DNA of 64,000 bases from Odontocerum albicorne (taxonomy: Eukaryota; Arthropoda; Insecta; Trichoptera; Odontoceridae). This document shows positions 5,651 to 61,644 of the stretch, one piece after another. The notes under the pieces were generated by a model. That model saw only the letters and a program-made list of their open reading frames with translations. It had not been told where the DNA came from and did not search any database. The stretch's first letter is position 1. Each line of letters starts with the position of its first letter. Made by a program: the position numbers and the translations under genes. The stretch spans positions 18,038,632 through 18,102,631 of the forward strand of contig OX463856.1 of assembly GCA_949825065.1 (NCBI GenBank). The letters are read 5' to 3'.

Positions 5651-5960
5651 TACCTATAAATCACAATGTCTTTAAACCTCCACAACGTTAATGTCTTAAC
5701 TATAAACAATATGGTATATGTATAATTTAATGGTATACGTTTAGTAATGTAATTAAAAATATATAACAATATATTTTTTTTAAAAGATATGTTATCCAAT
5801 TGAAAGGGAGCCAAGAATTAAATTTGATAATTTAATTAAGACACATAACATTATTCAATTAAAAAACAAACAGTTATATAGTTTCATAATGTTATTTAAA
5901 AAACAAATTACATTTTTGAATCAAAAGATATACTCGTACGTTTATTTAATGTAATGATAT
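5650..5960. repeat. Penelope 3' tail fragment (+) and AT-rich spacer
   Basis: Around 5662-5725 the plus strand carries CACAATGTCTTTAAACCTCC and TTAATGTCTTAACTATAAAC, the sequence that follows the terminal segment in other copies (6240-6300, 41040-41100). The rest is AT-rich with no feature apart from a TACTCGTA 8-mer at 5931. Confidence 0.55.
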
Positions 5961-6302
5961 AGTAATTTGTTTTATCAAGCACTGTTTATACCACTTTTTG
6001 TAACGATATAACCCTACCGGTTTCAAGGCTTTCACCTCATCATCAGGGGAGCACAAACAAGAACTGTTTGAACTGGTGCCAACATACACACTTCTAACGT
6101 TAAACATTCGGGTTGGGGACTGTGGTTGGACGGAGAGAGGAGTGGAGCACAATCAGGGGACCACAAACAAGACTTATATGTACTCGTATGTTAGGTACTA
6201 GTATAATGGCATATAATGAACCGTGTTTGATAAAACAAATTACAATGTATTTAAATCTCCACAATGTTAATGCCTTAACTATAAACAATATATTGATTTT
6301 AA
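5961..6302. mobile_element. Penelope terminal segments in inverted orientation
   Basis: A minus-strand terminal copy (5965-6130) has CTGATGATGAGG, a short stem, GAAACCGGTAGGGTTAT and the GTGGTATAAACAGTG end. It meets a plus-strand tail (6222-6300: GTGTTTGATAAAACAAATTA, then CTCCACAATGTTAATGCC). The plus-strand copy lacks its own hammerhead-like core. No protein is encoded. Confidence 0.7.
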
Positions 6303-6912
6303 TTGTTTTGTTTGTGATTTCATTTTGTTTCGCCGATCGTTTATATTTCTAATTATCACGTGAAACTTAATTATTGGTTTACTGTTAAAAATTATACTGT
6401 ATTTATGAATCGTATGGTTCTGTCAAGTTCTTAAATAAATAGTTTGAAATGTTCAACACTCCAAAGAGTGCTCCATGGAGATTTCTTTACTGTTTTATTT
6501 CAAGTCATTTGGAGTCTGGAAAGGGTCGTATTTTTTTAGGTTAAAGATAAACTAAACTCAAACGTGTTTTGAGACTAAAAAGCCTATCCAGCAACTTTTC
6601 CCTCGCATCAAGATAACAAATATTGAATTTGTAAGTTTATAAAACAAAATATATTAACAGTTTAAAAACCATTGTTCTTAACACTCGCGATTTCTGTAAT
6701 TTAAATAAAATTTTACTCAATTATTTAAATTAAGTCAACACTTATTTTACACTTGAAAGAATTAATAAATAATAACCCGATTTTTTTAATTATGTGAAAG
6801 TTATGTTGATTCATGAGTGTTTACTTCATGTTTTTTTTAATTTTTAAAAAGAGTTTTATTGTTCCATTTCATAAATATTTGGTTACTTAATGTTTTTCAT
6901 GAAGCGTCATTA
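6303..6912. other. AT-rich DNA, no feature seen
   Basis: No motif, repeat family or credible ORF recognised. Confidence 0.5.
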
Positions 6913-6980
6913 CGACATCCGTGATCTAGTTGGTAAGCCGCTTGACTTCCACCCGGATGTTTTAAATTACGAGTATACTA
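6913..6980 (+). mobile_element. SINE A tRNA-like head fragment
   Basis: ACATCCGTGATCTAGTTGGT resembles the box A-containing head of SINE A. The box B half is absent or unrecognisable. A TACGAGTA 8-mer lies at its end (6968-6975). Confidence 0.45.
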
Positions 6981-7194
6981 CCGATGATACCTGATAAAAA
7001 AATGAATTTAAAAAGTCACAGACTAGTAAAAAAGTTCGTCTGGTAACAATCTCCCGTGCACTAAACGTGTTCGAGTGTTGTTGGCCCTTTGTCGCTGTAG
7101 TTCTAGCCAGATGGTTTGATTACTGAGGGCGAATACAATATGGTATCCCGGTCACCAATTCGGTTATATTGCGCTTGTATATAAAAAAATATCA

Positions 7195-7275
7195 GTACCA
7201 AAAAAACGTATGTTGTTCCATCTTCAAAATGACATCAAAAACCGCTCAAGCATTTTTGTTAAACTATGACCAAAT
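7195..7275 (-). pseudogene. mariner 5'-region relic
   Basis: Matches the reverse complement of the segment near 9975-10035, just upstream of the mariner relic there, and the segment at 14025-14095. Shared landmarks on plus are TTCCATCTTCAAAATGAC and AACTATGACC. No coding motif by itself. Confidence 0.4.
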
Positions 7276-7309
7276 AATTGCCCTGGACTATTAAACCCTT
7301 CCATAATTT

Positions 7310-8562
7310 TTTTTTTTTTTTTTTTTTATCCACTTTGCACGGATTTCTCCTGTTACACAAAGAGGGTTTGCTTCTAGCGTTAGCTTATTCGTTAGGAATA
7401 ATATCAGCCAGGATTCTTCTCATACTGCTAGACGGTACCGAGAATATATCAACCGTGTCATTCAGTTGGTTCAATATCTCTATACCACGGGTGACTGAGT
7501 GTTTAGCCATGATATTCGTCCTGTAAGTTGGTATGTAGAACAGAGGGTGATTCCTTGCACGGATATATTTATTGGGTACATATAAACTTAGTGCTTCTAG
7601 AATCGCGGGACAGTTAAAGGAACCTTGGAAAACCTTTATTAGGAATATCGCAATGGATTCTTGCCTTCTTGTTTCAAGGCTTCTATAGTTACACACCGTG
7701 AGAAGTTCGGCATGGTGAGCATATTTAGGGTAATCGCCCTTTGTTCTGTACCATAGATATCTGAGGAATTTTTTTTGTATTAGTTCTATATTGTTTTTGT
7801 ATTTGAGCTGGTGAGGAGCCCAAACCGTAGATGCATATTCTAATTTGGTTCTAATTAGATCATTATATAAGTTTCGGAGGATATCGGTGCTGTTAAATTC
7901 TCTTGATATTCTCATTACAAAACCGAGTAGTTTGTAACAGTCCGATATCAAACGTGAGACATGGTTAACGAACGTGAGTCCGACATCGAAGGTTACGCCC
8001 AAATCCTTGAATTCAGAAACTCTGTTTAGTGCCACTCCCTGTATAGTATACTGATGGTGGATTGGTGAAAACGATCGACTATAAGATACACAGACACATT
8101 TATTAATGTTGAACAGAAGATGATTTTGCTCACTCCAGGAGACTAGGGAGTCTAGGTCCTGTTGTAACTGTGCACAGTCCTGAGGTGAATTGATCTTTTT
8201 GAATATTTTCAAATCGTCAGCGAACAATAAACATGTCGAGTGACTTATGGAATTTTGAATGTCGTCTATTAATATGAGGAATAGTAGGGGACCTAAATTG
8301 GATCCTTGTGGTATACCAGATCTTGCGATAAATTCCACAGAAGACTTGTTACGGATTGTTACGTATTGAGATCTTTCTTTTAGGTAAGATGCAAATAATC
8401 CAATTAGATTATCGCTGAAGCCAAGTTTGTGCATTTTCTTAAGTAATATATCGTGATCAACTTTGTCGAAAGCTTTCTTAAAGTCTGTATATATTACGTC
8501 CGTTTGTGAAAGTTCGTCTAAGTTTGACGCAATCTGTTGTGTGAGAGAGAGAATATACATTC
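7310..8562 (-). mobile_element. 5'-truncated non-LTR retrotransposon (Jockey/CR1-like)
   Basis: A minus-strand LINE fragment with most of the reverse transcriptase, its stop, and a 3' end abutting a T run at 7309-7327 (a poly-A tail on minus). Its 3' end recurs at 14.7-14.96 kb (plus) and 15.5-15.8 kb (minus), so the family has at least three copies here. The endonuclease and ORF1 are missing. Confidence 0.8.
7385..8560 (-). CDS. LINE reverse transcriptase, C-terminal 391 residues
   Basis: It copies element RNA into DNA at a nicked target during retrotransposition. Visible RT blocks in order: TDFKKAFDKVDHDILLKKM (about residues 25-43), SGIPQGSNLGPLLFLILIDD (about 81-100), FADDLKIFKK (about 113; FADD is the catalytic aspartate pair), FKDLGVTFD, and a C-terminal TRGIEILNQLNDTVDIF region. 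This covers the palm catalytic motifs and the region beyond. Family members also have an N-terminal endonuclease, absent here. The frame is uninterrupted over the fragment, so insertion or truncation is fairly recent compared with other LINE debris here. The Met is simply the first in the surviving frame, not a natural start. Confidence 0.85.
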   Translation of the reverse strand: MYILSLTQQIASNLDELSQTDVIYTDFKKAFDKVDHDILLKKMHKLGFSDNLIGLFASYLKERSQYVTIRNKSSVEFIARSGIPQGSNLGPLLFLILIDDIQNSISHSTCLLFADDLKIFKKINSPQDCAQLQQDLDSLVSWSEQNHLLFNINKCVCVSYSRSFSPIHHQYTIQGVALNRVSEFKDLGVTFDVGLTFVNHVSRLISDCYKLLGFVMRISREFNSTDILRNLYNDLIRTKLEYASTVWAPHQLKYKNNIELIQKKFLRYLWYRTKGDYPKYAHHAELLTVCNYRSLETRRQESIAIFLIKVFQGSFNCPAILEALSLYVPNKYIRARNHPLFYIPTYRTNIMAKHSVTRGIEILNQLNDTVDIFSVPSSSMRRILADIIPNE

Positions 8563-9059
8563 AGCACGTTTGTTATTAAGTTAGCAACAATAATTTTCTC
8601 CTAACAACATCTATTCGATAAAAACGAAACCACTTTCTTGACCACCATATACTCGTATTTTGCTTTATTTTAATTTTAATTTTCATGATTTATTTTTATA
8701 CTTGCTAAATTGAATTTCACAATATTTAGAAAAAAGTTTAATTTTAATTTTTTCTCTATTAAATAAACAAATTCTGGTGGAAGGGTTCGAGATAAGTTTA
8801 TGAAACTGGGTTAAAAACGGCTGTTTTTAAGTGTCCCCAGCACGTCCTTCGGGATTTTCTTCCCTTTATTCTGGAAGAGAGACTAAAATAGAAATCTATT
8901 CTCTAATTGCCGATGCCACAATCATCAATCAATAGCAAAAATGTTTTATAGCGTGACGCAAATTGATTTTTTTCTTTTGGAAAGAAAATTAAACGGAGTA
9001 AAAGTCAAAATAGTTGTGGAACACAAGAGGGAAACGATTTGAAATATTGTGTTGTGGTA
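8563..9059. other. no recognised feature
   Basis: AT-rich sequence without recognised motifs; one TACTCGTA 8-mer at 8650-8657. Confidence 0.5.
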
Positions 9060-9194
9060 GGGGAAAATAAATACTGTACGAGTATATGGATGAGTAATGA
9101 AAGATTGGAGCAAGTTGAGGAATTCTGATATTTAGGTAGATTTTTTTTCAAATAATGGAAAAGTTAAGAGAGGTATCGAACGGCGTATAACAAT
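9060..9194 (+). pseudogene. LINE X RT fragment, left part (interrupted by MITE)
   Basis: Translation reads ERLEQVEEF*YLGRFFSNNG and KVKRGIERRI. It matches the conserved LEQVEEF.YLG..F...G...EI..RI block in the RT thumb region of insect LINEs. One stop replaces the expected residue before YLG. It continues at 9592 after a 389-bp insertion. A second copy lies at 37.9-38.1 kb (minus). Compared with that copy, TACGAG at 9077-9082 is a 6-bp gain. Confidence 0.7.
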
Positions 9195-11455: not shown

Positions 11456-11989
11456 AAAAATAGATACGCCCTAACACTTTTGGAAAATATAAAACTATTC
11501 AGACCAAACTAAAGTTCCTAAAAATCATACTCAAGACAAAACCAATAAACATTCTTAATTAATATGCAAAAACAAACTATCAAATTTAACTAACAAATAC
11601 AAGTTAACTAACTACAAATTTAACTAACTAATACAGAAGTATATACGAGTATTCCCTTCAAAATAATTTTGTGAAACGAAATTCATCTCTGGAAACTAAT
11701 TCCACTGTTCATTGAGCCAGCATCCCACATATGTATATTGTTGTTAATGTGTTCATTATCAAACCACTGTCATTACAAACCATGTTAACCTTGTAGGTTC
11801 TTACAAGACTGAGAGTACATGGAGGTTGAGAAACGACGATAAGTGACTGATTGGTTTAGAGAAAAAACGTCCAGAAGGCTAAAGCTCTCCATTCTCTGTG
11901 TGCGATGATACTTGTGCTTGTTTGTTGTTGTTGCATCTTTGCGTGTGGGTTAATATTATCAACGTCCCTTGTCTACCCCAGTGAGTGCA
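11456..11989. other. no recognised feature
   Basis: AT-rich. The last 150 bp become more mixed in composition before SINE B. TACGAGTA lies at 11644-11651. Confidence 0.45.
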
Positions 11990-12844: not shown

Positions 12845-12990
12845 AAGATGATGAAAATAAAGAGTGATGAAAGAATAACTAACCGAGTATACAAGTCACA
12901 AATGCAAAGTGTGCGGAGAAGAGGTACGAGTAGATTGAGAAAGGCGAAGCTGGATCAAATTAACCAGATTTTGACAGTATGTTAAGTATA
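12845..12990 (+). pseudogene. LINE X C-terminal fragment
   Basis: Translation VMKERITNRVYKSQ, RRRGTSRLRKAKLDQINQIL matches ERLTKQIYKANVSG.RGRGRP.K.W.DQI..IL at the C-terminus of insect LINE polyproteins. The expected RGRP/RGRL is written as RGTSRL. The two extra codons equal ACGAGT within TACGAGTA at 12925-12932. Copies at 20.35, 55.44 and 59.59 kb lack them. Confidence 0.65.
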
Positions 12991-14960: not shown

Positions 14961-15494
14961 TTTTAAAATTGACTTATCTCCTAATTATGTTATTTGGACT
15001 TGTGCCAGTTTTGGATTAAAGGAGCGACATCACCCACTTCTCGTATCAAAAAAGTATTCTCTATTGTGGACTCGCGGGGGTTGTTGGGATGATGAGAAAA
15101 AATACAATAGAGCAAGATATAACAAGGGAGTGTATTTGAGCTGCGCTATAAGGCTATTTCAAGGGTCAAAAATTTTGTGAAAATTGTGTTTATAGGGGGA
15201 TTGATTCCGAATAAAAGTACCCAATTTGAAAAAGAAGTGTGTATATGCAAAGAGGCAATTCGATTTGCAAAATCTTTATCTTTCTTCTTCAAAACAACGA
15301 TATTTTAATAAAATATTCCAGCCTGTATGTTATATCAAGTAGGTACGAGTATATGTGAACGATTCGTTTCGCTAAAAACGTAAGGAATCGTCAAGTGTGC
15401 TAATGCGAGCTTATAATGTTAGAGTGATTATCATAAAAATGTATACCATAAGTAAATCTACATTCATTTACTTACACATATTAATGTAATACTC
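14961..15494. other. no recognised feature
   Basis: AT-rich; TACGAGTA at 15344-15351 only. Confidence 0.45.
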
Positions 15495-17060: not shown

Positions 17061-17994
17061 TGAAAATCATCAAAATAAATGTTATTTTTTTTATTATTAT
17101 TATAATCAAATTAAGCTCGCCAACAACTTGTTGAGAACTTATGACCCATTGTATTATATAGGACACACTTGATAGAGAAAAGTGGAAAGGAGAAAGAAGA
17201 AAGGCTATCGCGATTCTAAAATAAATTTACTGCCCTAAAATGAGACCAGCTTTATCTATGAAGGGAAGTATTTTACTTTCTATGACGTCAATATTTTCAT
17301 TCGAGAAAGGCTCGCTTTTTTATCGCTTCAATCAGAAAAATGTCTTAAGTGATTCGATTTTGTCTTATTTTGTTTTCCTCTCAAAGTTGTAATATCTCAA
17401 TATTGTATTTTTAAGATATTTTTTTCATTTCACGGACTTTTCAAATATCGAATTCCAAGAATCTGAAGAAGTGCTCCAAAATATGGTCGTTGGAAAAAAC
17501 TAAAAAATTCAGTGATATGCCAACTTATGACTGATGATAAACATATTGAATAAAATATGAAATTCATATATACTCGTATATATGTATATAGACGAGACAG
17601 TTGATTTTTGTCTTTCTTTTCATTGACTTTTTTTCTCTCAAACTTTCCGAGTTTTCTAAAATATGTTCAACTTTCGATATGATTTTTGTATGTGTATTGA
17701 AGTGGATGAATTATACGAATATGTATTTGTTTTAATTTTTGTTTCAGATAGTTATTTTTTTATATGTTAAGGCCTTGGATCTCCTGAACCTTGGCCTATT
17801 TCATGTTTGTATTATATGTATGGTAAGTACAAGTAGTATGCACGTACGTATTGCTTTTTGATATTTATCTGAATTTTAAATGTGTTAATATTTGTAATTT
17901 TTGTGAAAACATTCTGATTTGAGTATTACAATTGTAACTTTTTTTAGTACTCGATATAAAATAACATAATACATTGTATTCATCATCACCATCC
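17061..17994. other. AT-rich DNA, no feature seen
   Basis: A TACTCGTA 8-mer at 17571-17578 sits within a TA-rich tract. Nothing else recognised. Confidence 0.5.
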
Positions 17995-20009: not shown

Positions 20010-20770
20010 TTCTCTTCAGGATAAATGTCCCATCTGAAGAGAGAGATTAATGTAATTACTAAAATAACTTTGATCTATGGGACTGAAACGTGAACATGGA
20101 AAAACTGAGAGGAGTCAAATAAATGCTGTAGAAATGCGTGCATTAAGAAAAACACATGGAGTGACATTGTATCACAAAATATGGAATAAAGTGATAAGGG
20201 ATGAATGTGAACTTAAGGCTGATGACGTTTTAAGTAAAATGAAGAAGAGCACTCTAAGATATTTGGGGCATGTAGAACAAATGAATGAAGAAAAACTAAG
20301 AAAACAAATACTCGTATATAGTAAAAATGTGAGTAAAACTTATGGTAGAGGAAGATTAAAGAAAAACACAGTTGAATCAAGTGAATTATATTTTGAAATT
20401 GAATAAGTCAGAGAAATCGTAAAAGTTGTATGAGAAGGTGTATGGATGTTAAAGAGGTGAATTAAATGTGTCATTATGCAAAAGTCTGGCACTAATTCAT
20501 CTCTGCCAACTCCGACAGGAAGAAGACATAATGGTACATGTGTATGAATGCATTTGTTACTATAATAATCATACTGGGCTGAAAAATATCTGGTGTCCCC
20601 GTGGCTGGGTTCGCCCTATATTGGTGGGGTGTATCTTGGCTGAGGGGATGTTATTAGATGAGCCCAGACCTTTTGATAGCTTCTGTGTTTAATGTATTAT
20701 CTGCAATTTATGTGTTTTAGAAGTGTTATTTAAATATATTTTGTACATACTATGTTGCTGTCAATAAATC
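20010..20770 (+). mobile_element. LINE X 3' end with TTA-repeat tail
   Basis: Contains the RT C-terminal frame (20077-20406), then coding remnants (LCKSLALIHLCQL, equivalent to the CRDR..W..L.S..P end of related elements). A 3' region follows to AATAAATCTATATTTATTTA and a TTA microsatellite. The sequence from about 20575 to 20700 is somewhat GC-richer and may be a 3'UTR. 5' truncated. Confidence 0.65.
20077..20406 (+). pseudogene. LINE X RT C-terminal fragment
   Basis: Residues in order: RSQINAVEMRALRKTHGVTL (RINAFEM.FLR...GVT), KVIRDECELKADDVLSKMKK, STLRYLGHVEQMNEEKLRKQ (LRW.GHV.RM.EERL.K.) and GRGRLKK (RGRPRK). This is the region after the RT palm in many insect LINEs. At residue 78-81 the sequence ILVYSK contains codons from TACTCG (20309-20314), which the aligned copy at 55.39 kb lacks. 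The frame is open but lacks the catalytic motifs, so it cannot act alone. Confidence 0.7.
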
Positions 20771-21273
20771 TATATTTATTTATTATTATTATTATACAAT
20801 TAATTTTGAAACGAAACTGATCACAACAGCAACCAAATATGTTAGTGTCACAAATTCACTGACATGCGTGTATATCCCTTAAAATGACAAATATTTTCAG
20901 CTATTGCATGTTACTATTAAACATTACTTTAAATTATACTATTGACCTAAATACTCATCGGTATAATATGCTACAATAAATTCTAATTTTGACATAACTT
21001 AACTGACACCTATTATATTCAGACATCTTGTCATTCGACCTTAAACATTGTTCTTAACCTTGTTAACCTTGTGATACTCCAGAATATTATTATTATTATT
21101 ATTATTATTACACATGACAAGAAATATACACAATTTGAGAAAAAACAACAGGTAATTTGATTTGGACATATAATTTTAATGGATCTGGGTTTGTTGCCTT
21201 TCATTTGTCGTATCCCCAGTAAACTAGGTTTTTGCCTGTATCTCACTGAGGATATTTAGCATGATAAAATAAA
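20771..21273. other. mostly featureless; TTA microsatellite
   Basis: A (TTA)n tract of about nine units lies at 21085-21111. No other family recognised. Confidence 0.55.
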
Positions 21274-22050
21274 TCGATACTTCTTTCCGATTTTTGATAA
21301 CACAAAAAACCCCGTTGCACGCTCTCATCAACCTGACAAACAGTGACACTCAACTACAACTGGAAACATCTTGCGAAACTCAACTCCTCCCACATTATCA
21401 CTCCAGAAAGACCAAAAATATTCATCCCACAATATACCGCACACAATCATAAGAATAAAAATCAAAACAAAAAAAAGAAGAAAAAAAGAAAAACACACAG
21501 AAACACAAATACAAAAACAACCAAAATTAAAACAACAAGAAGAGACCCACACTCACGAGCTCACATAAATCCTTTCCACTCGTCATTCATCCTGAACGCC
21601 CAAGTACTCAAAATCCTGTCGCAATAACAACCACGCTCCGATCGACTGTCTAAATGGTTTTCCTACCTTTACTTTTATTGAAGTCGGCACGCCATTGTAT
21701 GTAATGGGAGCCAAATAAGCATATTGCCTTTGGGCAAAAGAGGTTTTAACTCTAGGGATGGTGAACATTCCATTAGTTGCCATGCGTGTCATGTGTGTCT
21801 GCTGAGTTTGAATCTTCCCCTCCTCTCGATGGTAGTGCCAGAGAATGGATTTGAGATGTAAATTGGCTATGTTCAGGATCTGATACTCTCTGAAAAGCTC
21901 CGTCGTGGGATACCGGGCAGGAAGTTTATTGATTATTTTCCCAATCAATTTTTGGGAAACCTGTAATATGTGTTTTTGGGTTAAGGTGCATCCCCCCCAA
22001 ACTGATATACCGTAAGAAAGTGCTGACTGGCATAAGGCGAAGTATATACT
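21274..22050 (-). mobile_element. LINE W copy A, 5'-truncated
   Basis: A 160-codon minus frame (21583-22065) encodes IYFALCQSALSYGISVWGG, HILQVSQKLIGKIINKLPAR, YPTTELFREYQILNI and a TPITYNGVPTSIK-like end. This is the C-terminal region of a non-LTR RT. The 3'UTR runs to about 21274. The 5' break falls right after the SIYFALC codons, where sequence changes to TTTTCC. Copies B and C follow. Confidence 0.75.
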
Positions 22051-22057
22051 TTTTCCA

Positions 22058-23172: not shown

Positions 23173-23215
23173 TTTTCCAAGGAAACACAACTACAGTCAG
23201 ACATGGGTGAACAAG
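22265..23215 (-). pseudogene. LINE W copy B, RT C-terminal fragment
   Basis: A 214-codon frame (22560-23204) starts at SDCSCVSLEKVDSIKYLGVY, reads VDQFLRWEVHINTLSAKIRK and LGYIFRMIRNVLSENILKSI, and continues like copy A. SIKYLGVY.D..L.W..HI is the RT block following the palm. The longest of the three copies at its 5' side. No stop in the fragment. Confidence 0.8.
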
Positions 23216-24321
23216 TGTGTAGTGTTATGTAAAATTATGACTTTGTGACCCCCTACAAAATCGTTATATCTTAATGATGCATGTACACGTGGGAAAATAA
23301 TGTAATTGCACAAAGACGATAAGCTTTATTATGAAGGGATACCCACCGTTTTATGTTGTTGAAATAAATTATCAATTACATTCCGATCTTAATATTGTAT
23401 ACACGTCTAAATCCTTACACTGAAGCTCCACATTCCTTTCCTGCTCATTTCTGGTGGCATTGTCCCGATTTCGTGTCCTACGAGTATGACTTTCAGCCTG
23501 CACAGCGGTTGATCCAATCGCATTTATTAAGTTACTTTACGAGTATATCCAATAACAACTAGATGAGTTCCGTGACCTAGTTGCTAAGATGACTGTTTTC
23601 CGAACCGGTGGTTGTGGGTTCGATCCTTTTGGAGCCCAATTTTTTTCATAAAGTTTTTATGGAGATGGTGAATTAAGGGAAATTAGACCGAGTACTTTTC
23701 TGGAAAATAAACTGCAAAAACTGCACGGAAACACTTTGTAGATAATCCGATTTGCGATAGTAACACATAAATACATATATTATAATTGGGATTTTAATCG
23801 TTAGTATTATTTAAAAAATATGTGTGTTGTATGAATTGACTGATTCATTTCATATAAGTGAATCAATAAAATTAAATAATATACATTTTAAAATTCGCAG
23901 AATGCCTCTTCCATGAAAGTCAGTGGAGTGTCAAATTTCATAATAAAAATAGTTTTCGAAACAATTTTCATAAAACAAAATACCGTGGATATGTGTTCAT
24001 CAGAGTCGAAAAATGCCATTTTTTTCATGTTTAATATATTGGCCTGGGCAATAAAAGTCCATAGCTAAAATAATTCCCAAAGTTTTGGAAGTAAATTTAG
24101 TAAAATGGTGACAACCGTAGCGATTATATGCCAGAATGAACGCTCCAAATTATACTTGGGTTGCTATCAACGCATAGCAATCCGCTATACTGAATTGCTC
24201 CAACGTCAAAATGCAGAAACTAATTTAGGTATTTATAAAAATTCTTTTTCCAAAAAATATGACTCAATATTTTGCTGAGTTAAATTAATAATAATTGTTT
24301 TAGTAAGTGGTTTTTACTTGG
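23173..24321. other. spacer of the inverted duplication
   Basis: About 1.15 kb of single-copy-looking AT-rich DNA. It contains a SINE A head fragment at 23564-23650 and two TACGAGTA 8-mers (23479-23486, 23538-23545). No coding feature recognised. Confidence 0.5.
23564..23650 (+). mobile_element. SINE A tRNA-like head fragment
   Basis: GAGTTCCGTGACCTAGTTGC (box A) and GGTTGTGGGTTCGATCCTTT (box B) stand at the usual spacing, followed by GGAGCCCAATTTTTTT. The body ends early and no tail is seen. Confidence 0.6.
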
Positions 24322-30210: not shown

Positions 30211-30554
30211 TACCATTAGCAAAATACAGTATGTATGAATGCTTTTTCAATATGTTAAATTGATAAAAAAATGAATACTAAAGAAAAGATTACTTTGTTG
30301 CCACAATTGATCATCATGTGATGATAAAGTGTGATGACCCCTCCTATTCCGATATTATTTTCGTCTTCTAGATAGGAGGTCAAATTACGTGCCTTGTGGG
30401 TCAAGTTTAGTAAGTGGAATAATAAATTAATTTCATGTTTAATTCATATTCAGAATTTGTAATAATACCACTAAATACTCGTACAATCTGAAATCTTAGG
30501 TAAATCAAAACATTATGTTTTTAAAATGTTGAAATATAAATAATCTTTTTGTAA
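30211..30554. other. AT-rich DNA, no feature seen
   Basis: TACTCGTA at 30476-30483 only. Confidence 0.45.
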
Positions 30555-30770: not shown

Positions 30771-32113
30771 AACTATAAATAACATAAATAATATTTATTG
30801 TTGTAAAGGAAATAAAAATATATTTTGGTATTTCATAGAAAAATATAATTTTCTTTGATATATCGGTAATATTGGTTTTAAAAGAAAGCATTTTAGAAAT
30901 TCTTCCATAAATAATACTTTACTTTGGCTTTCATAAATTTTGTTTTTAGGGCTCAAGGCTTTTTTTTATTTTTTAATCTTTCATTTACTGACCATGACTC
31001 TGGAACCAACAACCGGTTAATGGAAAATCCACACCATCGTTAATATGCTTCAAAAAGCTAATGAAAATTCATTATTACATGACCCTTTAGTGACATTGTG
31101 TTTTTATCGTCCCTTTTTCAATCTTTGTTTTATTCTCTTAACCATTGATGACTTTGTTAAATTTGTGATATTTTCAATTATCTACATTGATAATGTAAAT
31201 ACCCCACCTATCAGTCAAACTTTATTTTAAATATATAGTTAATTAAAATAGAACACTTGATAATAAACTAACTTACACTGTACAAGATGTTATAAGTAAA
31301 ATAAAATTATCAAGGAGAAAAATCTTGCTACGCCACTGTTGACACGTTAACAAAAAAGAAATAAAACCTGTTGCAAGAAATGTAAGACTTTTTATTAAAG
31401 AACTATATTTTATATTTTATTCCTCATTAAGTGATTTTATTATATTTTTATTAACAACGCTCATAAAAATGATATAAATTATGGACAAGGATGTATGTAT
31501 AAAAATGATAAGCCTTTGTTGTAAACGAACCAAATTTAATTAAATGAAAGAAGGTTTTTTTATATTGTTTTTTTATTTTACTAACAGTAAACTCTCCATT
31601 TACGCGGGTACTAGGTTCCAAGAAAAGAGTGCGTAAATGAATACCGCGTAAATATCAATTGAATGCTTTGTAAAGTTTTGATTTCTTACTAGTTTCCAAA
31701 TAGTCTATTTCATACGTTAAACTATTTTTAGTTCTTTATTTCCTGTTCCAACACGCTGTTCAATATTTCATTTCCCCTTTCCATCATCTGACAACTATTT
31801 CACAAGTAAACTTTATTTTTATTGCACACTACTCTTTATGAATTTTAAACTTTCTAATTTAAAAAGTACGATTGTAATTACGTTTGGTATACTCGTACTT
31901 GTATCATATTTTTTTCCGTTTTGTATAGATATAAATAAATGTTTTTCCGTTTTGACTTGATGTTTTTCACTTTGTTGTGTTTTTTCTATAATCTGTTTTT
32001 CAATAATTGCTAATCTGAATCATGGCTCAGAAACACTGACATAACATTTTTTGTTTATTACAACTGAGAATCCGGCAAAGTGACGTAACTATAGTTACTA
32101 TTTTCCCATTCGA
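30771..32113. other. AT-rich DNA; one possible pogo-like end
   Basis: CAGTAAACTCTCCATTTACG then CGGGTACTAGGTTCCAAG near 31586-31623 looks like the end of a pogo/Tigger-type transposon, but no partner end was found. TACTCGTA at 31890-31897. Otherwise featureless. Confidence 0.35.
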
Positions 32114-34012: not shown

Positions 34013-34599
34013 TTTAGACGTAGCATTATAAAATTATATTTAAAAAAAAATCTAATAGAAAAGTATGCATGATAAACGTGGCAAAAGCGCAAAATAGAAT
34101 TAAGTGGATATATGTTATCCCTGTCTACTCTAATTCATTATGATGATGATAAGTTTCAGTTAGGTTTTTTCCGTAAGTCCAATAACATCTGAAAATCTTT
34201 TTTAACACCTTTTTGATTGGTTGTAAGAATTTGTACATGGCAGTAAATCCATCAGGTTGTACAACAGAAGTGTAAAATAATACTGGTATTACAAATCATA
34301 AAAAAATAATAATAAGAACTTATTGGATTCAAAGTTTAAGAGATATATCATCAATGTATTTCCCTTCTCTTCTACAATATATAAAATAATATTTTTATCT
34401 TTTGAAACCCATTTCATTTCCAAAACTAAAATCTGATTTGTGTGAGAATAAAATAAAAGTTACGATGAAGTGACTTTTCGGACAAATGCCAATCTTTTAG
34501 TCATTTTCGAGTAAAATACTCGTATGTCAACATGTTAATATGGCGTTTGTGTATTAAATATTGTCAAATCTCACAAACGTTTAACTCGGATCTTTAAAA
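34013..34599. other. AT-rich DNA, no feature seen
   Basis: TACTCGTA at 34517-34524. A triplicated ACGTCCATCCTGACGTGTA-type motif follows at 34606-34660. Confidence 0.45.
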
Positions 34600-36262: not shown

Positions 36263-36894
36263 CTCTACCTACGGTAGTATTACCAACACTTACAATTTCG
36301 AACTGTGATCTGAAGCCAACAAAAGTAGTCAAATCCTGAAAGTTCGGTTATAAGGGCCAAGAAAAATGTTTTATCCCGGGTACACTCTTTATCAAATCAG
36401 ATATGTTGAGGGTGGCCATAAGAATGAATGAACAATCTTTAAAATAACTAAATTATTTTGACAAACAGTGTTGATACTGTTAAAATAGGTCTGAAGGTGT
36501 TGAAACTCATGAGGCCACTGTGGTATAATTTGTGCTCTGAGTCCGCCATTTTGGGTCCGCCCCGTTATGGGTAAAATTTTGTTCGGTGGACTCCATTAAA
36601 GCATAATCTGTGGTATGGAGCGGCCGCGTAATTCCTGTCATTTGGCTTTCATTTGCCGCAAATACATCGAGACATTCGACAGGGAGAAATGTTAGGAGTA
36701 TGAATATGCCAGACATATCATACTCTTACGATTTAATATCGTCGTGCAAAGCGCAAACAATATAATCTCAGTTACATTGACTTCAGAAAATAACGTTTTT
36801 GAAATTATCCGTAAATATTTATTAGAACTCATTAAAAAATATAAATTAATAGAAATACGAGTATATAAAGATTTTTTTCTTATGTACAATATAT
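36263..36894. other. no recognised feature
   Basis: Contains TACGAGTA at 36856-36863. Nothing else recognised. Confidence 0.45.
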
Positions 36895-39368: not shown

Positions 39369-40470
39369 TAAATATAAAATGGAAAAAAATTCAAAGTTAT
39401 TTTGAATTAAAAGAATTAACCACGCCTTATAGCGTGTAACAGGATATATAACTTAATTCTGTATAACAGGAGGTGTTAAATTTTAATGAAATTCATAACG
39501 TAAAAAATAATTATAATGAATAAAGTTGATTTAGACCTGGGTAAATCTGTAATAAACGAAATTGCAGGTTCCTGAGAACGAAAACCACGGAAATATCCAT
39601 ATGAAATCAATTCATCCATTTAAACAGAACCTAAATTGTTTGAGCGGATGTGGTTAGCAAATTAATGTATTTGTTAATTAATGGTACAATGTTCTTTAAA
39701 ACAATAATCATATTTAAAAAACAGTAGTGAGTGCATCATACTTTTCAAAAAGATAAATATATAAAATAATAATTTAGAACAATTACAATAAAATTGAATG
39801 CAAAGAAACAAACGCAAGAAAAAAATTCAAACTGCACATAAATATGGAAGTCCAGTCTCACAACATTGCGGATATTCACCTATATGAGTAACCAACACAA
39901 TACGGATCCGTCCAAAGGTGGACGGCCCGCACTGCACAAAACCGGGCGTCACTTTTGACATCAATGTGAAATGGGAATATGAATATGGATGGATAATCAA
40001 CATACGAGTATACATACCAAACGTCAAAATCGTTCCCACAACACTCAATGTCTCAAGAGGCCAATATATAATATTATGAAAAGATTAATCATATAGTAGA
40101 ACAACAAATTAAAAAAATAAGTGAAGGATGGAATCAGACAGTTGTAAATTCATTAACCTCCTCCAGCACTGTAGATAATATATGAGAATAGATTAAAAAT
40201 ACTTATATTTATATTTTTTTCAGTTTACGCATTAGGTAATTAGTCAGTCACGTGAATGGTCATATAATGATCACATTAATTGCGCAATATATGCAGTCTT
40301 GTTATGTAATATTTGTACAAATAATTGGTTGCAATCACTTCACTATGGAATAAAACATTTTGTTAAGTGGGCCTTAAAGGAACGTGTAACATGGCAAGCT
40401 GAGTGTGTTCCTCAGTATTGAGATACGAGCTGAAATTTCTTAAATAAAGTCGAATATTTTCCTTATTGTA
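39369..40470. other. AT-rich DNA, no feature seen
   Basis: A 73-codon minus frame at 39827-40048 is not recognised. TACGAGTA at 40003-40010. Confidence 0.45.
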
Positions 40471-46953: not shown

Positions 46954-48592
46954 GTTCTTGGATGTAGTTAAGGAGGTTCATGGCTTCGGTGATGGCTGAT
47001 TTTAGGTTGTTTAGAATGAGATCGCGATTTGGGGGGGGGGCGACGGGCGATGTGTAGTTTTGGGGTGTAGATGACGATAATAGGGGGCGGCGAGTTGCGA
47101 CGTTCGCATATGACGCGTTGGAGGTGACCGGTTTCGATGCACTCTGGGGGGCGTTGGGGAATCGCCATGTGGCGTTGATTGCCGAGGGGGCGTTCGAAAG
47201 GGGGCGTTGGGGGTCGTTGGTAGAGGGTCGTTGGTAAATGCCATCCATGAGGGGGCGTAAGGGCTGCGGGGTCTGGAAGTGGTGTTGGGGAGCGATTGAA
47301 GGGAAGTTGCTCTTAGGGAAGCGTGGGCAGCCTCTGAAGTTGGCCGTGTGTGGGCCTCCGCAGTTACAGCAGGTGGCGGGAGTGTCCGCGGGCTTCCTGC
47401 ATTCTGATGTGTGATGCGTTCTACCGCATTTAACACAGTTGGCTGGGGCGTGGCAGTTGCCGGCGGAATGGGCGAACTGTTGGCATCGATGACACTGGCC
47501 CATGCCTTTGCGCTTGTTCAGCTCCTCCACTGTGACTCGAATATCGAGTACACCGTGGAGTTCGGTGAAGATGCGCTTTGCGGCAGAGTCCCTTGTCATC
47601 TTGACAACGACCATGGGGAGTTCCACTCGATTTCGGTTTTTCATACGGTATACGTTCTGGACCGGGTAGTCGAGGGATTTAAACTCAATCATTATGTCCT
47701 CGACGCTGATAGGGGTCGGTAGGCCACGAATGACGGCTAACAGGGGCTTTTCGTTCTCCAGGTGGAAGGAGTGGTATGGGATGGCGAGAGAGTCGGTAAT
47801 GTGGACGAGGGAGCGGTAAGCATCGACGGTTTCTGTGGAGATTTTTAAATCTCCATTGGGCTGAACCTTCGAGGTGAAGTTAATGTTTTGAGACCTGAGT
47901 TTGGCTCTCAGGTCGCCGTACTTGTCGGAATTATGAAGAACGATGGGGGGGATGCGGTCTTTTTTGACCGGAAGTAGAGGTCGTACGACTGTATTTGAAG
48001 GTGGAGCGGGAGCTGCGGGAAGAGGAGGGCTGAGTGGGCCTCTCATCCTTTTGTTTGTTTGGGTCGCAGTGGCATCATCTGGTTTCGGGTTTGTCTGGGG
48101 GCGGACGAGGGGGGGGCTTATTTGAGACTGGAGAGCCCTTTTTCGGTTTTTGGCAAAAGATTGCCAGTCCATATCTGGAGTATCCGGGATGATGATTGTT
48201 GGTGGGGGATCCATAGTGGCAGAGGAGCGCGGTGGTGTTGGGAGTGAGACGGTTGGCAAGACAGTTGGTGAAACGGGTGAGGGGTTTGTGGCCGCGATCG
48301 AGACCTCACCTTTGTTGACGAGCTCCCGAAGGAGTTTCACCATCTTCATCGTTACTCTTTTGGAAGTGTTCTCCATATTGAAGAGCTCGATGGCTTCTTC
48401 GAAAGTGGAGATGGTTAAATCGGGGGATGTTGAGCGGACCGGAGACATAGCGGTTGATGGTGTAGGCGAGGCCACGGGGACGGAAGCGGGCGTTTCAGGC
48501 GTTGATGTTTTCCTAATGATGATACGTGGGGTTGTGATGAAGAAGTCCGACTTGGCGGACTTGGCGGACTTGATGGACTTGACGGACTTCAT
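46937..48592 (-). CDS. Jockey ORF1: gag-like RNA-binding protein
   Basis: A 551-residue protein expected to bind the element RNA and form the RNP. The N-terminus is Lys/Ser-rich with repeated KSVKSIKSAKSAKS. Residues about 40-230 are Pro/Thr-rich and probably disordered. A folded segment about 235-355 contains KDRIPPIVLHNSDKYGDL and VIRGLPTPISVEDIMIEFKS (RRM-like, PRE_C2HC-type region). Three CCHC zinc knuckles follow at about 364-420: CHRCQQFAHSAGNCHAP, CVKCGRTHHTSEC, CCNCGGPHTANFRGCP. The C-terminus is Pro/Asn-rich. It starts at the first ATG of the frame, after an in-frame upstream stop region. Domain order matches Jockey ORF1 proteins. Confidence 0.92.
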   Translation of the reverse strand: MKSVKSIKSAKSAKSDFFITTPRIIIRKTSTPETPASVPVASPTPSTAMSPVRSTSPDLTISTFEEAIELFNMENTSKRVTMKMVKLLRELVNKGEVSIAATNPSPVSPTVLPTVSLPTPPRSSATMDPPPTIIIPDTPDMDWQSFAKNRKRALQSQISPPLVRPQTNPKPDDATATQTNKRMRGPLSPPLPAAPAPPSNTVVRPLLPVKKDRIPPIVLHNSDKYGDLRAKLRSQNINFTSKVQPNGDLKISTETVDAYRSLVHITDSLAIPYHSFHLENEKPLLAVIRGLPTPISVEDIMIEFKSLDYPVQNVYRMKNRNRVELPMVVVKMTRDSAAKRIFTELHGVLDIRVTVEELNKRKGMGQCHRCQQFAHSAGNCHAPANCVKCGRTHHTSECRKPADTPATCCNCGGPHTANFRGCPRFPKSNFPSIAPQHHFQTPQPLRPLMDGIYQRPSTNDPQRPLSNAPSAINATWRFPNAPQSASKPVTSNASYANVATRRPLLSSSTPQNYTSPVAPPPNRDLILNNLKSAITEAMNLLNYIQEHGSHL

Positions 48593-49287
48593 GATTGTTT
48601 AGTCGGAAGAAGAAATGAGCAGAAGAAGAAGAATAACGGTAGAAGTAAATGTATAAATGGCTGTGGAGAAAGTATAGGTAAGTTATAATAATAATAATAA
48701 GATGAAATGAACAAATAAATAAATGATAGATAAGGTTATGAAGGGTGATGTGAATAAATGAATGAAGTATGGGATGAAGATAGGATGGGAAGAGTTGCCG
48801 ACCTTATTCAGATTTGCAACTCCGCCCGAGGAGTGGAAAAGAGTGAGAAGGACAGAACAGTCAGTAGCTTACTTGACGAAGAAGAAGACGACTGGCATGG
48901 ACCGGAACTCGAAACAAATTAATTCACTTATAACTTTTTTTTTTTTTTTTTGGAGGCCTGCTCCTTAATGTATAGAAAACGCGAACAAAGTTAAACACTG
49001 GTGGCCGTGACGAGGAAATTGTTCATGCGCAAGCGCGGTTGATGACGTCACTTGGTGTGACGAGCGTGGGCGAAATGCGAAGCTTCGGTGAAGATGACAC
49101 TGATTGCGACTGCGCGCGAGCACTATGTTCGGTGACAAACGGGCGTAGGCGACACTGCGAGCGCACAATTGGCGGGACGCGGGCTGATACGGTTGTATCT
49201 ATCTATCGGAACGAACTGTGGAGAGAGCGCGTATGTTTGCGGGTAAAGGCGACTGCTCCAGAGCAGGTCCGTGACTGGAATGCCTGT
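48593..49287 (-). promoter_or_regulatory. 5'UTR and probable internal promoter of Jockey element
   Basis: About 695 nt upstream of ORF1 on minus. The distal part (48960-49287) is GC-rich. It includes CAGTCGC and CAGTCACG motifs near the start, compatible with an initiator-type internal promoter as in Jockey elements. This is inference. The proximal part is A-rich with AATAATAATAATAAG-type runs. The boundary at 49287 is set by the 11-bp repeat. Confidence 0.5.
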
Positions 49288-49298
49288 GTGTTTCGGTT
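49288..49298. repeat. 11-bp junction repeat between Jockey copies
   Basis: GTGTTTCGGTT, separating the 5' end of copy 1 from the 3' end of copy 2. Confidence 0.75.
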
Positions 49299-51229
49299 AA
49301 CTAGTGGTTGATAACTTGTTTGGAGTTTCGGTCCGATGGTAGGACACCTTACTCCTTCATCGGATAAGTTCTGACTGTTTTGATATTTTGGAAATTTTGG
49401 ATCTTTTTAAGAGTCGGGAAAGGATAGGTTTGTGGTAAATGTTTTGATTTTATGAATGATTATGAGAAATTATAAAACGATTAAATACATAAATAAATGT
49501 GATAGTATATACATAATATTACATAAGAATATACATTTAGTTGTGTCGTCACACACGAATATATTGAGTGGGTGAAAAATAATGGTTATGAATAAAATAT
49601 AGTACGAAAGTGAATATAGTATGTAAATATATATAGGTAATTAAGTGGATAAGGAGACGTGTGTGACTTATATAAATATATTAAAAATGTAAAAAATGTT
49701 TATTGAAGGTGGTAAATGCGGTTGCCTAAGGGGGTAAACTGTCTTGCGGAGGAGCTGTCGATGAAGGGGTGTCCAGAGTGACGATCGGTGGGTCATTTGG
49801 GGGGGTGATTACGGTTAAGGAGTGGGGGTTCGGAGGGGCGTTTCGTAATATTGATTTCGGGCGAGTGTGTCTGAATCTGGTGTTGGCGCTGTAGTTATCT
49901 AAGGATTTTATGATTGGGTTGGGATGACAGGATACAGAGCTGTAAAACCTCTCGGCCAGAGCGCGCATATGTTCGGGGATGGTATGTAGTTTGATATCCG
50001 CGTGGAGTCTAGAGTTACGTACTATGTAGGGTGCTTTTAAGATTATGCGGAGGGCTTTGTTTTGAATGACTTGAATGTGATGTAGAGTTGATTTCTTCGC
50101 GTGGCCCCAGACCGGAAGGGCGTAAGTCAGTTGAGGTCTGATGATCGCTTTATAGAGATGGAGTTTAGTGCGCGGGCTCAGTTTGCTGTGTTTGCAGATC
50201 AAGGGATATAATGATTTGAGTGTTCCGTGAGCTTTTGATTTTATATTATGGGCGTGTTTGTACCACGAGAGTTTACTATCCAAGGTGAGGCCTAAGTATT
50301 TCACGTGTTTCGTCCATGGGACGCTCTGGCCGAAGAGTTTAAGAGTTCTGACGGGTTCGATATATCTGCGTGAGAAGCGGACAGCAGTGCTTTTGGTAGG
50401 ATTAATTTTGATCTTCCATTTGGTGCACCAGCGCTCCAAAATGGGAATGAAGTCTTGCAGTCTATCGTGGGAATCGGACTCATATTTCGATGAAGAGAGG
50501 AAGGCTGTGTCGTCAGCGTATTGCGCGGTGATACAATGTGTGCGTGAAAATTGAGGCATATCGCTCGTGTATATGTTATACAGGATAGGGGACAGCAGTG
50601 CACCTTGGGGTACTCCTGCCAGAATGGGGCGTGGGGATGAGTTTATGCCGTCTATTTTGACGGAGAAGGAGCGATTTTCGAGGAATGATGCGATGATTTG
50701 CACTAGTCTGAGGGGAATACCTGACTTGTGCAGTTTGAATATGAGTCCGTTATGCCAGACTGTGTCGAAGGCTTTCGCCACGTCTAGTGAAAGGAGGGTC
50801 GTGAGGCCTTTGGCTCTGAAGGATTTGATTATGTGTTCTACAACGCGAAGAAGCTGATGGCTGGTAGAGTGTAATGGCCTAAATCCGTGTTGCGAATCTG
50901 GGATGATGTTGCGTGAGTAAGTTTCGGTGGAGAGACGTTCGAGGATTAATTTCTCGAGCACTTTACCTAGAGTCGGGAGCAGGCTGATCGGTCTGTGATT
51001 TTCGGGGATAATGTGGCTTTTACCCGGTTTGGGGAACATGATGACGTCGGCGTTTTTGAAAGGGGTCGGAAAGAATTTATGTCGAAGGCAGGCATTGTAG
51101 ATGGCAGTAAGGGCGTAAATGGCTTTTTTCGGGAGTTTTTTCAAGGTGAGATTATTGATTTTATCGGGGCCGGGTGCTTTTTTATTAATGAGATTTTTAA
51201 TGATAGATTGTATTTCTATCGGTGAGAAG
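49299..51229 (-). mobile_element. Jockey copy 2, 5'-truncated
   Basis: Nearly identical to 43720-45652, same strand. It carries the 3'UTR and the last about 500 codons of ORF2 and stops abruptly at 51229. 5' truncation is usual for target-primed reverse transcription that ends early. The few differences from copy 1 are scattered substitutions, so both insertions are recent. Confidence 0.9.
49726..51229 (-). pseudogene. Jockey ORF2 fragment (RT), copy 2
   Basis: Open frame of 505 codons counting from 51243; the first few codons (MNRNT) are flank, element sequence starts at FSPIEIQSII. It retains all RT motifs (GVPQGALLSPILYNI, QYADDTAFLSSS) but no endonuclease. Differences from copy 1: LERWCTKW for LEHWCTKW, INPTKS for INPSKS, VITPPND for VIIPPND, LDTPSS for LDSPTS. 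It cannot retrotranspose itself. Confidence 0.9.
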
Positions 51230-56402: not shown

Positions 56403-57019
56403 TACAATTGATGATAAATAAATATATAAGTAAGCCTCAGAAGCAGAAACGATCAGCCTCTTTGTCTCTCCACTAAGTTAAACCTGCGAGTCACACAGTT
56501 TCCGGGGTATGTCGCTGTCCGTGCGCTGGGAGCTATTCGAAGCCAAAGGTGAAGAGTTTAAAATGTCAGCGGACCTGAGGCTGAGTACTTTCAAGGTGAC
56601 CCTAAACAAGTTAGTACTGTCCACAACGTACTATCGTTTTACATCTCGCTACACCCCAAATACGTTTTTTTTTCAATATTTATTATCTTTTGAAAATGAC
56701 GATGGCCATATACTCGTATAGCTGCCCGCGAAGAAAGTCCCACGAAGAATATCCCGCGAAGAACCTACCCCACAGTACCGTCTAGTTCCGCATCGACTTG
56801 CAAGAGGAATTTTACGGCTTGCTCGAGCCAAGTGAGAGTTAAAGTCTTAGTAAAGACTTAAACAAGTCAGAGAAATGGATAATATCCAGTTCACTTGAGA
56901 AATTATTGCTAAAATAGTTTTATGAGATCAAGATTTATTATAACAAAATGGGAGGCGAGGGTGCTGTTAGTTGTAAAGAAAAACGTTCACATTTTAAGGT
57001 ATGTTACATATGTTAACTA
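56403..57019. other. unassigned
   Basis: GC-richer around 56480-56620. A 70-codon frame there is not recognised. TACTCGTA at 56711-56718. Confidence 0.4.
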
Positions 57020-59507: not shown

Positions 59508-59565
59508 AAACCTTTGTAGCCTAGTTCGTAAGATTTCTTTCATCCAACTCATAAAGGCCAAGAAA
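59508..59565 (+). mobile_element. SINE A head-like fragment
   Basis: ACCTTTGTAGCCTAGTTCGT resembles box A of SINE A. No box B found. Confidence 0.35.
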
Positions 59566-59584
59566 ACAAATATACAGTTCCATT

Positions 59585-59694
59585 GTGAGTGGAAATCGAG
59601 GTAGAAGAAGACCAAGGAAGGTGTGGTCGGATCAAGTGTATGATTTTTTTGAAAGAAGTAAATCTAAAAGTCAGAGAAATCAGAGGTGTTGTAT
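59585..59694 (+). pseudogene. LINE X C-terminal fragment
   Basis: SGNRGRRRPRKVWSDQVYDF then FERSKSKSQRNQRC matches GKRGRGRPRK.W.DQ...FL......S.R..R. Open but only about 35 codons of true homology before SINE B begins. The overlapping frames are a composite. Confidence 0.7.
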
Positions 59695-60569: not shown

Positions 60570-60655
60570 TGCCGTAGAGATTTATTTATTTCCTTCTTTT
60601 TTAAAGTGAGTGATCCGTTCAACACCAGCAAACTCACCGACCTCTTTATAAACTA
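60570..60655 (-). mobile_element. SINE B tail fragment
   Basis: CTGTGCCGTAGAGATTTATT, AAAGTGAGTGATCCGTTCAA, CACCAGCAAACTCACCGACC match the distal end seen at 30.01 kb. Head absent. Confidence 0.65.
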
Positions 60656-60994
60656 GAGAATATATAAACTAGTGTTTGTGTAATTTAACTATATACGAGT
60701 ATATTGAGATAAAGTTTGAATTTTATCTCGAACATACAATGATTACCCAATGAATGCAAGCAATTGATAAACAAGTTGGATATTATTGTGTAACATTTGG
60801 TCGCATACTGTACGTGTAATAAGTGGGTGTAAAGAGAGTTTAATCTGAAAGTTTATTAAAATACCTATGGTGTTCAAAAAGAACACTTTTATTAGAAAAA
60901 GTTAGAAAATGCAGGGTAAAAAAAATTCAATTTTGAAATCAAGACAATTGTTTAAAATGAGAAACAAATTACGCGTATGACTTATTTACACGAG
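60656..60994. other. AT-rich DNA, no feature seen
   Basis: TACGAGTA at 60694-60701 only. Confidence 0.45.
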
Positions 60995-60995
60995 T

Positions 60996-61227
60996 TTTCG
61001 GGCATATAATATGCTCTACCCATTAATGTAAAGTCATCGGACATATAATATGCTCTATCCATTAATGTAGTCGTCGGACATATAATATGCTCTACCCATT
61101 AATGTAAAGTCATCGGACATATAATATGCTCTACCCATTAATGTAAAGTCATCGTACATACAATATGCTCTACCCATTAATGTAAAGTCATCGGACATAT
61201 AATATGCTCTACCCATTAATGTAAACT
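60996..61227. repeat. minisatellite, 6 copies of a 39-bp unit
   Basis: Unit GTCATCGGACATATAATATG, CTCTACCCATTAATGTAAA. Copy 2 has CTCTATCC and lacks the final AA; copy 3 starts GTCGTCGG; copy 5 has CGTACATACAATATG. Confidence 0.92.
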
Positions 61228-61399
61228 AATTTATTGATTTTAAAAAACCTCTTCCAATTGACCAGCTTTTGATTCATAATAAATATTGCCTTAAAATAAT
61301 ATAGAAAACAATATTTTGAAAAAATTCACATAAACCAAATTAAAGATAAATCTCAAGGAAAATAGAGGTAAGGGTGAGAATTAAGGAAGAGAAATATTT

Positions 61400-61482
61400 T
61401 GGATTAAAAAATGCTTCTTTTGTGTATTTTTAAATATTGATAAGGATATAACACATTTGACTGGGACATTTTCTTACTTTAA
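61400..61482 (-). pseudogene. LINE 3'-end fragment (52.9-kb family)
   Basis: AAATGCTTCTTTTGTGTATT, AAATATTGATAAGGATATAA, CATTTGACTGGGACATTTTC matches 52885-52955 in order. No coding motif. Confidence 0.5.
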
Positions 61483-61644
61483 CGACGTGATGAAATTAAT
61501 GTTAACACTAACTAGGGAATGTTAGCATTAACGAATTTCGAAGATTAACATTTACATATAATATATAATACTCGTATATGGCATGTGTTTATCTAATGAA
61601 CGTGACGTTATATATAAAAATCTTTTCCACAGGATTCAGAGTCC

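What the first reader, a model, noticed from the sequence alone, without database searches (positions are those of the whole stretch)
5931..61576. Dispersed 8-mer TACTCGTA/TACGAGTA that looks like a 6-bp excision footprint at TA
I count 20 copies. TACTCGTA: 5931, 6181, 8650, 17571, 20309, 30476, 31890, 34517, 56711, 61569. TACGAGTA: 6968, 9077, 11644, 12925, 15344, 23479, 23538, 36856, 40003, 60694. Orientation is balanced. At roughly two-thirds AT, about 2-3 would be expected by chance. In three LINE X fragments a related copy in the window lacks exactly six bases: 9077 versus 38056 (CTG[TACGAG]TATATGGATG / CGATATATGAGTG); 12925 versus 20347 (AGAGG[TACGAG]TAGATTG / AGAGGAAGATTA); 20309 versus 55405 (CAAA[TACTCG]TATATAG / CAAATTTATAG). 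A gain of TA plus four bases (CTCG or CGAG) is what excision of a TA-target (Tc1/mariner-type) element leaves. I see no element with CTCG/CGAG ends here. The density, about one per 3 kb, would mean a very active former or hidden transposon, or another six-base insertion process.
Basis: partly seen in the sequence, partly recalled or inferred. Interest (0 to 1): 0.88.

Follow-up and report, generated by a model that had tools for sequence, protein, structure and literature searches.

The report
Mariner transposon excision scars, genome-wide
The repeated 8-letter word is the six-base scar that a family of jumping genes (mariner) leaves when it cuts itself out, and this insect genome, probably a caddisfly's, carries a few hundred thousand of them, far more than the recognisable copies of the jumping gene that remain.

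Summary
In the whole 1.287-Gb genome the word occurs 381,502 times, its reversed control 30,151 times. It is a gain: 11 of 22 comparable sites have a relative shorter by exactly six bases, against 26 of 726 other TA-N4-TA sites. Taking the six bases out leaves an ATATATAT-like target. At least 15,794 such ends remain; 18 sampled ends show the same target preference. These are therefore mariner excision footprints, TA plus CGAG or CTCG. The class is known. Unusual are the number (up to about 44 per surviving element, an upper bound), the few one-base derivatives, and four added bases where mariners are reported to cut three inside. Whether the cut is four bases, or three-base overhangs join through a GA/AG mispair, is unresolved.

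The parts
5931..5938 (+). TACTCGTA, candidate footprint
   Evidence: relative at 4889 ambiguous
6181..6188 (+). TACTCGTA, candidate footprint (preceded by G)
6968..6975 (-). TACGAGTA, candidate footprint
   Evidence: one relative shorter by 5
8650..8657 (+). TACTCGTA, candidate footprint
9077..9084 (-). TACGAGTA, footprint in a repeat; relative at about 38056 is six bases shorter
11644..11651 (-). TACGAGTA, candidate footprint
12925..12932 (-). TACGAGTA, candidate footprint; relatives shorter by 6 (one) and 4 (one)
15344..15351 (-). TACGAGTA, candidate footprint
17571..17578 (+). TACTCGTA, candidate footprint in an AT-palindromic context
20309..20316 (+). TACTCGTA, footprint; 6 of 8 alignments to relatives are shorter by exactly six bases
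23479..23486 (-). TACGAGTA, candidate footprint, 59 bases from the next
23538..23545 (-). TACGAGTA, candidate footprint
30476..30483 (+). TACTCGTA, candidate footprint
31890..31897 (+). TACTCGTA, candidate footprint
34517..34524 (+). TACTCGTA, candidate footprint
36856..36863 (-). TACGAGTA, candidate footprint
40003..40010 (-). TACGAGTA, candidate footprint
56711..56718 (+). TACTCGTA, candidate footprint
60694..60701 (-). TACGAGTA, candidate footprint
61569..61576 (+). TACTCGTA, candidate footprint
59562..59590 (+). unfilled relative of the 20309 site (AAGAAAACAAATATACAG...), six bases shorter

Best explanation
Most of the copies are excision footprints of mariner-like (Tc1/mariner superfamily, DD34D) transposons whose terminal inverted repeats begin CGAGG. 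The element inserts at a TA inside an ATATATAT-like site and duplicates the TA. On excision a few terminal bases stay on each flank as 3' overhangs carrying CGA(G) on both sides. The two overhangs are joined: the outer C and G pair, the inner GA faces AG, and resolving that mismatch toward one strand or the other gives TACGAGTA or TACTCGTA, a net gain of six bases. Shown here: the word's excess, the six-base gain, the target site, the existence, type and target preference of CGAGG-ended elements. Inferred: that these elements (and not another CGAG-ended one) made the scars, and the joining step. Two geometries give the same product: a four-base stagger with fully overlapping overhangs, or the usual three-base stagger with a two-base overlap and one base filled in on each strand.
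For: Excess. Gain: 11 of 22 sites with relatives have one shorter by exactly 6, against 26 of 726 for other TA-N4-TA sites (Fisher p 4e-10); the same 8-mer is shared by a relative in 2 of 22 against 386 of 726. Clear cases: L018:1501 against its own tandem neighbour, L047:883 (11 of 15 alignments), L059:1794 inside a Tc1-type transposase region (16 of 18). Target: after removal of the six bases, 40 half-sites of the 20 window copies read A 29, T 23, A 29 at -3 to -1 and near background from -4. Source: L027 holds a 931-bp TA-flanked element with 30-bp, 90% identical terminal repeats starting CGAGGC, a PF01359 transposase piece, D-34-D spacing in three further copies; 10,763 ends of this family, reversed control 0; 15,794 ends by a wider pattern, control 208. 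18 sampled ends have A 13, T 12, A 11 of 18 at -3 to -1 outside the TA.
Against: An unguided tally of clean gaps of 1-16 bases gave the TACTCG class only 4 of 33 distinct six-base gains, tied with another class. Of the 22 comparable sites, 11 do not show a six-base relative: 5 are equal-length at the mode, others differ by 4, 5, 11, 12 or 14 bases, some readable as compound footprints, some as poor alignments. Mariners are reported to cut three bases inside; the plain three-base footprint TACGATA is not enriched (19 vs 35 expected). A reconstructed CGAGGG-ended mariner, Hsmar2, left non-canonical footprints in cells (PMC3770610). No excision was observed, and no allele pair filled/empty at one locus was seen.
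Confidence: 0.9

Rival explanations
1. The scars come from another TA-target element with CGAG ends, for example a Minos-type Tc1 transposon, whose known footprint has the same length.
For: Minos leaves a 6-bp footprint (PMC10992017 passage); its ends begin CGAG (recalled). Tc1-type transposases are plentiful here (150 of 1,568 candidates scored, all 150 listed).
Against: Of the 30 Tc1-type loci fetched, the terminal repeats that could be found begin TACAC or TACAG or are unclear, none TACGAG. CGAGG mariner ends are abundant and share the target preference. The Minos terminal repeat itself was not searched for in the genome.
Confidence: 0.08
2. The 8-mer is a functional DNA motif (protein-binding site) kept by selection.
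For: Near-palindromic, sharply defined, 13-fold over the reversed control.
Against: It is absent as a six-base block from most comparable repeat relatives, sits in LINE and transposase remains, and is flanked by a TA-target consensus.
Confidence: 0.03
3. The 8-mer is ancestral sequence of amplified repeats.
For: Some copies sit in tandem arrays: L021 about 1935-2440, L011 (two copies), and at least 11 of the 100 places listed for C1 lie in two arrays of period 66 and 99.
Against: Outside arrays, relatives rarely share it (2 of 22, both the L011 pair).
Confidence: 0.04

Closest known systems
Macrosiphinimar mariner elements of aphids (irritans subfamily, DD34D; Apismar1.1, Mpmar1.1)
   Same: Terminal repeat CGAGGCGTGTCCAGAAAGTAAGTGTACT in the paper's table (PMC5490172 passages) against CGAGGC[AG]TATCCAGAAAGTAAGTGTACTGA here; DD34D; internally deleted copies of about 0.9 kb in both.
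   Different: Aphid copy numbers in that paper are tens; here over ten thousand ends. No footprints are described in the passages seen.
Rhodnius prolixus mariners (Rpmar33 and others)
   Same: Rpmar33 repeat CGAGGCATGTCCAGAAAGTAAGTGTA; many Rhodnius mariners start CGAGG (PMC4678618 passage).
   Different: The words footprint and excision do not occur in that paper's main text.
Minos (Drosophila hydei) excision footprint
   Same: Six-base footprint at TA (PMC10992017 passage); CGAG/CTCG resolution of a heteroduplex is recalled from work on Minos, not seen here.
   Different: Minos is a Tc1-type element with long terminal repeats; the source here is mariner-type.
Sleeping Beauty / Mos1 footprints
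   Same: Cut-and-paste at TA, scar made of terminal bases plus TA (PMC7827188 passages; PMC3878927 passages).
   Different: Three-base overhangs there; four bases between the TAs here.

Membership tests
Tc1/mariner excision footprint | TA on both sides of the added bases | tested here: met
   One-mismatch words that lose either TA are at background or below in the window except TACTCGAA 9 vs 2.3
Tc1/mariner excision footprint | Clean gain of TA plus terminal bases against unfilled relatives | tested here: met
   11 of 22 vs control 26 of 726
Tc1/mariner excision footprint | Added bases equal the ends of an element in the genome | tested here: met
   CGAGG... ends beside TA, 10,763 and 15,794
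Tc1/mariner excision footprint | Same target preference as insertions | tested here: met
   only 18 ends
canonical three-base mariner footprint | Three terminal bases between the TAs (TACGATA/TATCGTA) | tested here: not met
   19 vs 35 expected in the 255-kb pool; blunt three-base product TACGATCGTA 418 vs control 508 genome-wide
mariner DD34D (source elements) | Transposase_1 domain and D-34-D spacing | tested here: met
   PF01359 1.1e-20 in one L027 piece, the other piece matched no family; spacing 34 in L067, L068, L070
mariner irritans subfamily, Macrosiphinimar | Terminal repeat and closest transposases | tested here: met
   best named relatives Cacopsylla melanoneura 80% and Uroleucon formosanum 79%
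mariner irritans subfamily, Macrosiphinimar | Placement in a tree of mariner transposases | not tested
   no tree built
Minos | Minos terminal repeat and transposase | not tested
   no search with Minos sequence was run

The most novel reading that the evidence does not exclude
This genome is a record of mariner traffic in which leaving is the rule: hundreds of thousands of excisions fixed as six-base scars, up to about 44 per recognisable surviving element, so that scars, not copies, are the family's main mark; and CGAGG-ended mariners leave a four-base footprint because two three-base CGA overhangs lock through a tandem GA/AG mispair, or because their transposase cuts four bases inside.
Probability: 0.45. 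Interest if true: 0.78.

Novelty: new variant of a known kind. Interest (0 to 1): 0.62.

Why it matters
Transposon history is usually read from surviving copies. Here the scars count departures, are identical in sequence, datable by decay and sit in their target context, so excision rate, repair outcome and target choice of a mariner can be measured in nature from one genome. The same word should be excessive in any genome with many CGAGG-ended mariners; Rhodnius prolixus (Rpmar0, 8,041 copies) is a ready test. Two scars of six bases per locus keep reading frame, so effects on genes may be small. A short dispersed word like this can also be mistaken for a regulatory motif.

Tried and rejected
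Ancestral-repeat and binding-motif readings: rejected. A second footprint class TACACGTA: its excess in the pool came mainly from one tandem array in L013. Text searches for the 8-mer found primers and oligonucleotides in the 20 papers listed each time, nothing relevant. Searches for mariner/Minos footprints and genome-wide footprint counts listed no paper on dispersed mariner footprints; only listings, not all papers, were looked at. A search on tandem sheared GA mispairs gave no usable paper, so that part of the mechanism rests on recall. Nearest-neighbour energies did not single out CGAG among 16 C-NN-G self-duplexes, and a single fold was ill designed; neither supports the mispair idea. 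One search used a wider terminal-repeat pattern that was one N too short (234 vs control 114) and is replaced. The one-mismatch genome count (448,778 vs control 101,510) mixes decayed cores with flank variants and was not used for dating. Rfam: no match in the window. PMC8872012 was opened by mistake.
Full report
Observation. The window holds 20 copies of TACTCGTA/TACGAGTA at exactly the listed coordinates, ten in each orientation. An order-2 Markov model expects 1.6. After masking seven tandem arrays and three near-identical LINE copies it has the lowest chance probability of any 8-mer seen at least five times, 20 against 1.45; among TA-N4-TA words the next is TAATAATA, 32 against 10. The window lies in a genome of 1,287,057,991 bases in 1,241 contigs (C24:18038632-18102631). 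There the word occurs 381,502 times, its reversed control 30,151 times; ATACTCGTAT 122,672 against 2,416. The excess is about 351,000, one per 3.7 kb. This overstates separate events: some copies are multiplied in tandem arrays, at least 11 of the 100 places listed, and the L021 minisatellite. In the part of the fetched DNA not chosen for the word (41 sequences, 184,247 bases, window included) there are 45 sites, 0.24 per kb.

It is a gain. Loci fetched from the same genome plus the window were pooled, overlapping loci dropped and arrays masked (255,440 bases). For every TA-N4-TA site, 2,310 in all, relatives in the pool were aligned; alignments of 160 or more columns at over 99.5% identity were set aside as possible overlaps. 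Of 158 TACTCGTA sites 22 had a spanning relative; in 11 some relative was shorter by exactly six bases, in 9 that was the commonest difference. Of the other sites 726 had relatives, and 26 had one shorter by six (12 as the commonest). A relative kept the same 8-mer in 2 of 22 against 386 of 726. Fisher p for the six-base difference is 4e-10. Good examples are L018:1501, whose tandem neighbour lacks CTCGTA, L047:883 and L059:1794, each within a many-copy Tc1-type family. Against this, 11 of the 22 do not show a six-base relative: five are equal in length at the mode (two of them the L011 pair), others differ by 4 to 14 bases. Two of the latter, in L047 and L050, carry about 15 added bases at the same TA of one family and look like compound scars. 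An unguided tally of gaps with strict flanks found the TACTCG class in only 4 of 33 distinct six-base gains, tied with ACTGCT.

Target. With the six bases taken out, the 40 half-sites of the window copies read A 29, T 23, A 29 at positions -3 to -1 from the TA and return to background at -4: an ATATATAT-like palindrome, as known for Tc1/mariner elements (recalled). The 157 pooled sites with flanks show the same.

Source. Of 237 TACGAG in a 235-kb pool, 166 are followed by TA; among the rest one family recurs, TACGAGG[CG][AGT]TATCCA[AG]AAA[GC]TAAG. L027 holds a whole copy: 931 bp, TA on both sides, 30-bp terminal repeats 90% identical, with broken frames of a mariner transposase, one piece matching PF01359 at 1.1e-20, the other no family. 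Genome-wide 10,763 ends match the family pattern (control 0), 15,794 a wider one (control 208), with at least two families visible in the listing. Six distinct copies with both ends among those fetched measure 856 to 953 bp, shorter than the 1.3 kb of complete mariners in the papers. In three loci the frame is open across the second and third catalytic D, 34 residues apart. The closest named transposases are from a psyllid (80%) and an aphid (79%). The repeat is nearly that of Macrosiphinimar, irritans subfamily, in aphids (PMC5490172, passages) and Rpmar33 in Rhodnius (PMC4678618, passage). Outside 18 sampled ends the bases at -3 to -1 are A 13, T 12, A 11 of 18 (p 0.001, 0.006, 0.03), the preference of the scars.

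Numbers. About 351,000 excess words over 15,794 ends gives 22 per end, 44 per two-ended element. This is an upper bound: decayed ends, other CGAG-ended families and tandem copies are not accounted for. The scars look young: in the pool the word is 158 against 7.4 expected, while all 24 single-mismatch words together are 204 against 184, six of that surplus in one array. With A and T flanks the surplus is clearer, 38 against 21.7, again six in that array. Roughly one to four substitutions per hundred sites on average; this is my estimate, and the Markov expectation contains the scars themselves.

Joining. Sleeping Beauty and mariner transposases nick three bases inside (PMC7827188, passages), Mos1 leaves three-base overhangs (PMC4505599, passages), others two to three (PMC2170065, passages). 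Minos leaves a six-base footprint (PMC10992017, passage). Here four bases lie between the TAs. Either the cut is four inside, or three-base overhangs CGA on both flanks overlap by two, GA facing AG, and one base is filled in on each strand; both give C(GA/AG)G, resolved to CGAG or CTCG. The sequence does not decide. Simple three-base scars (TACGATA) are not enriched; the blunt fill-in product of three bases is not enriched (TACGATCGTA 418 vs 508); that of four bases is rare, 53 places against 7 for the reversed word but about what a Markov model gives. This leans slightly to four bases. That tandem GA mispairs are stable is recalled; energies computed here did not show it.

Orientation. ATACTCGTAC occurs 57,124 times, GTACTCGTAT 41,593 (controls 1,395 and 1,631), net ratio 1.39. 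If the choice between CGAG and CTCG were random they should be equal. So the resolution seems to depend on the flank; arrays may contribute. Unexplained.

Organism. COX1 from contig C1241 is 95% identical to Psilotreta and 91% to Marilia, odontocerid caddisflies (family membership recalled). Odontocerum albicorne has a 1.306-Gb assembly and over 312 Mb of LINEs (PMC8881205, passages), similar in size to this genome, so that species is possible; not proven.

Verdict. The kind of feature is known; its number here and the four-base form are what is new to me. Literature searches listed no report of it, but the library is partial and only listings and passages were read.

Noticed in passing
window 43708-45649 and 49287-51229: Two LINE copies 99% identical over 1,943 bp; a 943-residue open frame (44146-46977, -) matches apurinic-endonuclease and reverse-transcriptase families and a 553-residue frame (46937-48598, -) shows zinc-knuckle-like Cys/His motifs: a probably young Jockey-like element.
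   Followed up: partly
window 25953-26663, 35680-36259, 60998-61225: Tandem arrays of 44-bp (16 copies, 98%), 58-bp (10 copies, 97%) and 39-bp units.
   Followed up: no
window 21270-25432: Three LINE fragments 92-98% identical, one inverted, within 4 kb.
   Followed up: no
L021 about 1935-2440; L011 41 and 191: Minisatellite-like repeats whose unit contains the footprint: scars can be multiplied by tandem duplication.
   Followed up: partly
L047 about 1017 and L050 about 1018: Two copies of one Tc1-type family each carry about 15 added bases, of different sequence, at the same TA: repeated hits or compound footprints.
   Followed up: partly
genome-wide: ATACTCGTAC exceeds GTACTCGTAT by 1.39 after subtracting controls, so CTCG/CGAG choice depends on the flanking base.
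   Followed up: partly
L031-L060: Several Tc1-type families with ends TACACT[AG]GCGGTCATTGAAATG and TACAGTCTGTTTGACAAG; the corresponding scars were not conspicuous in the window (TACAGTA 17 vs 8.2, TACATA 69 vs 58).
   Followed up: partly
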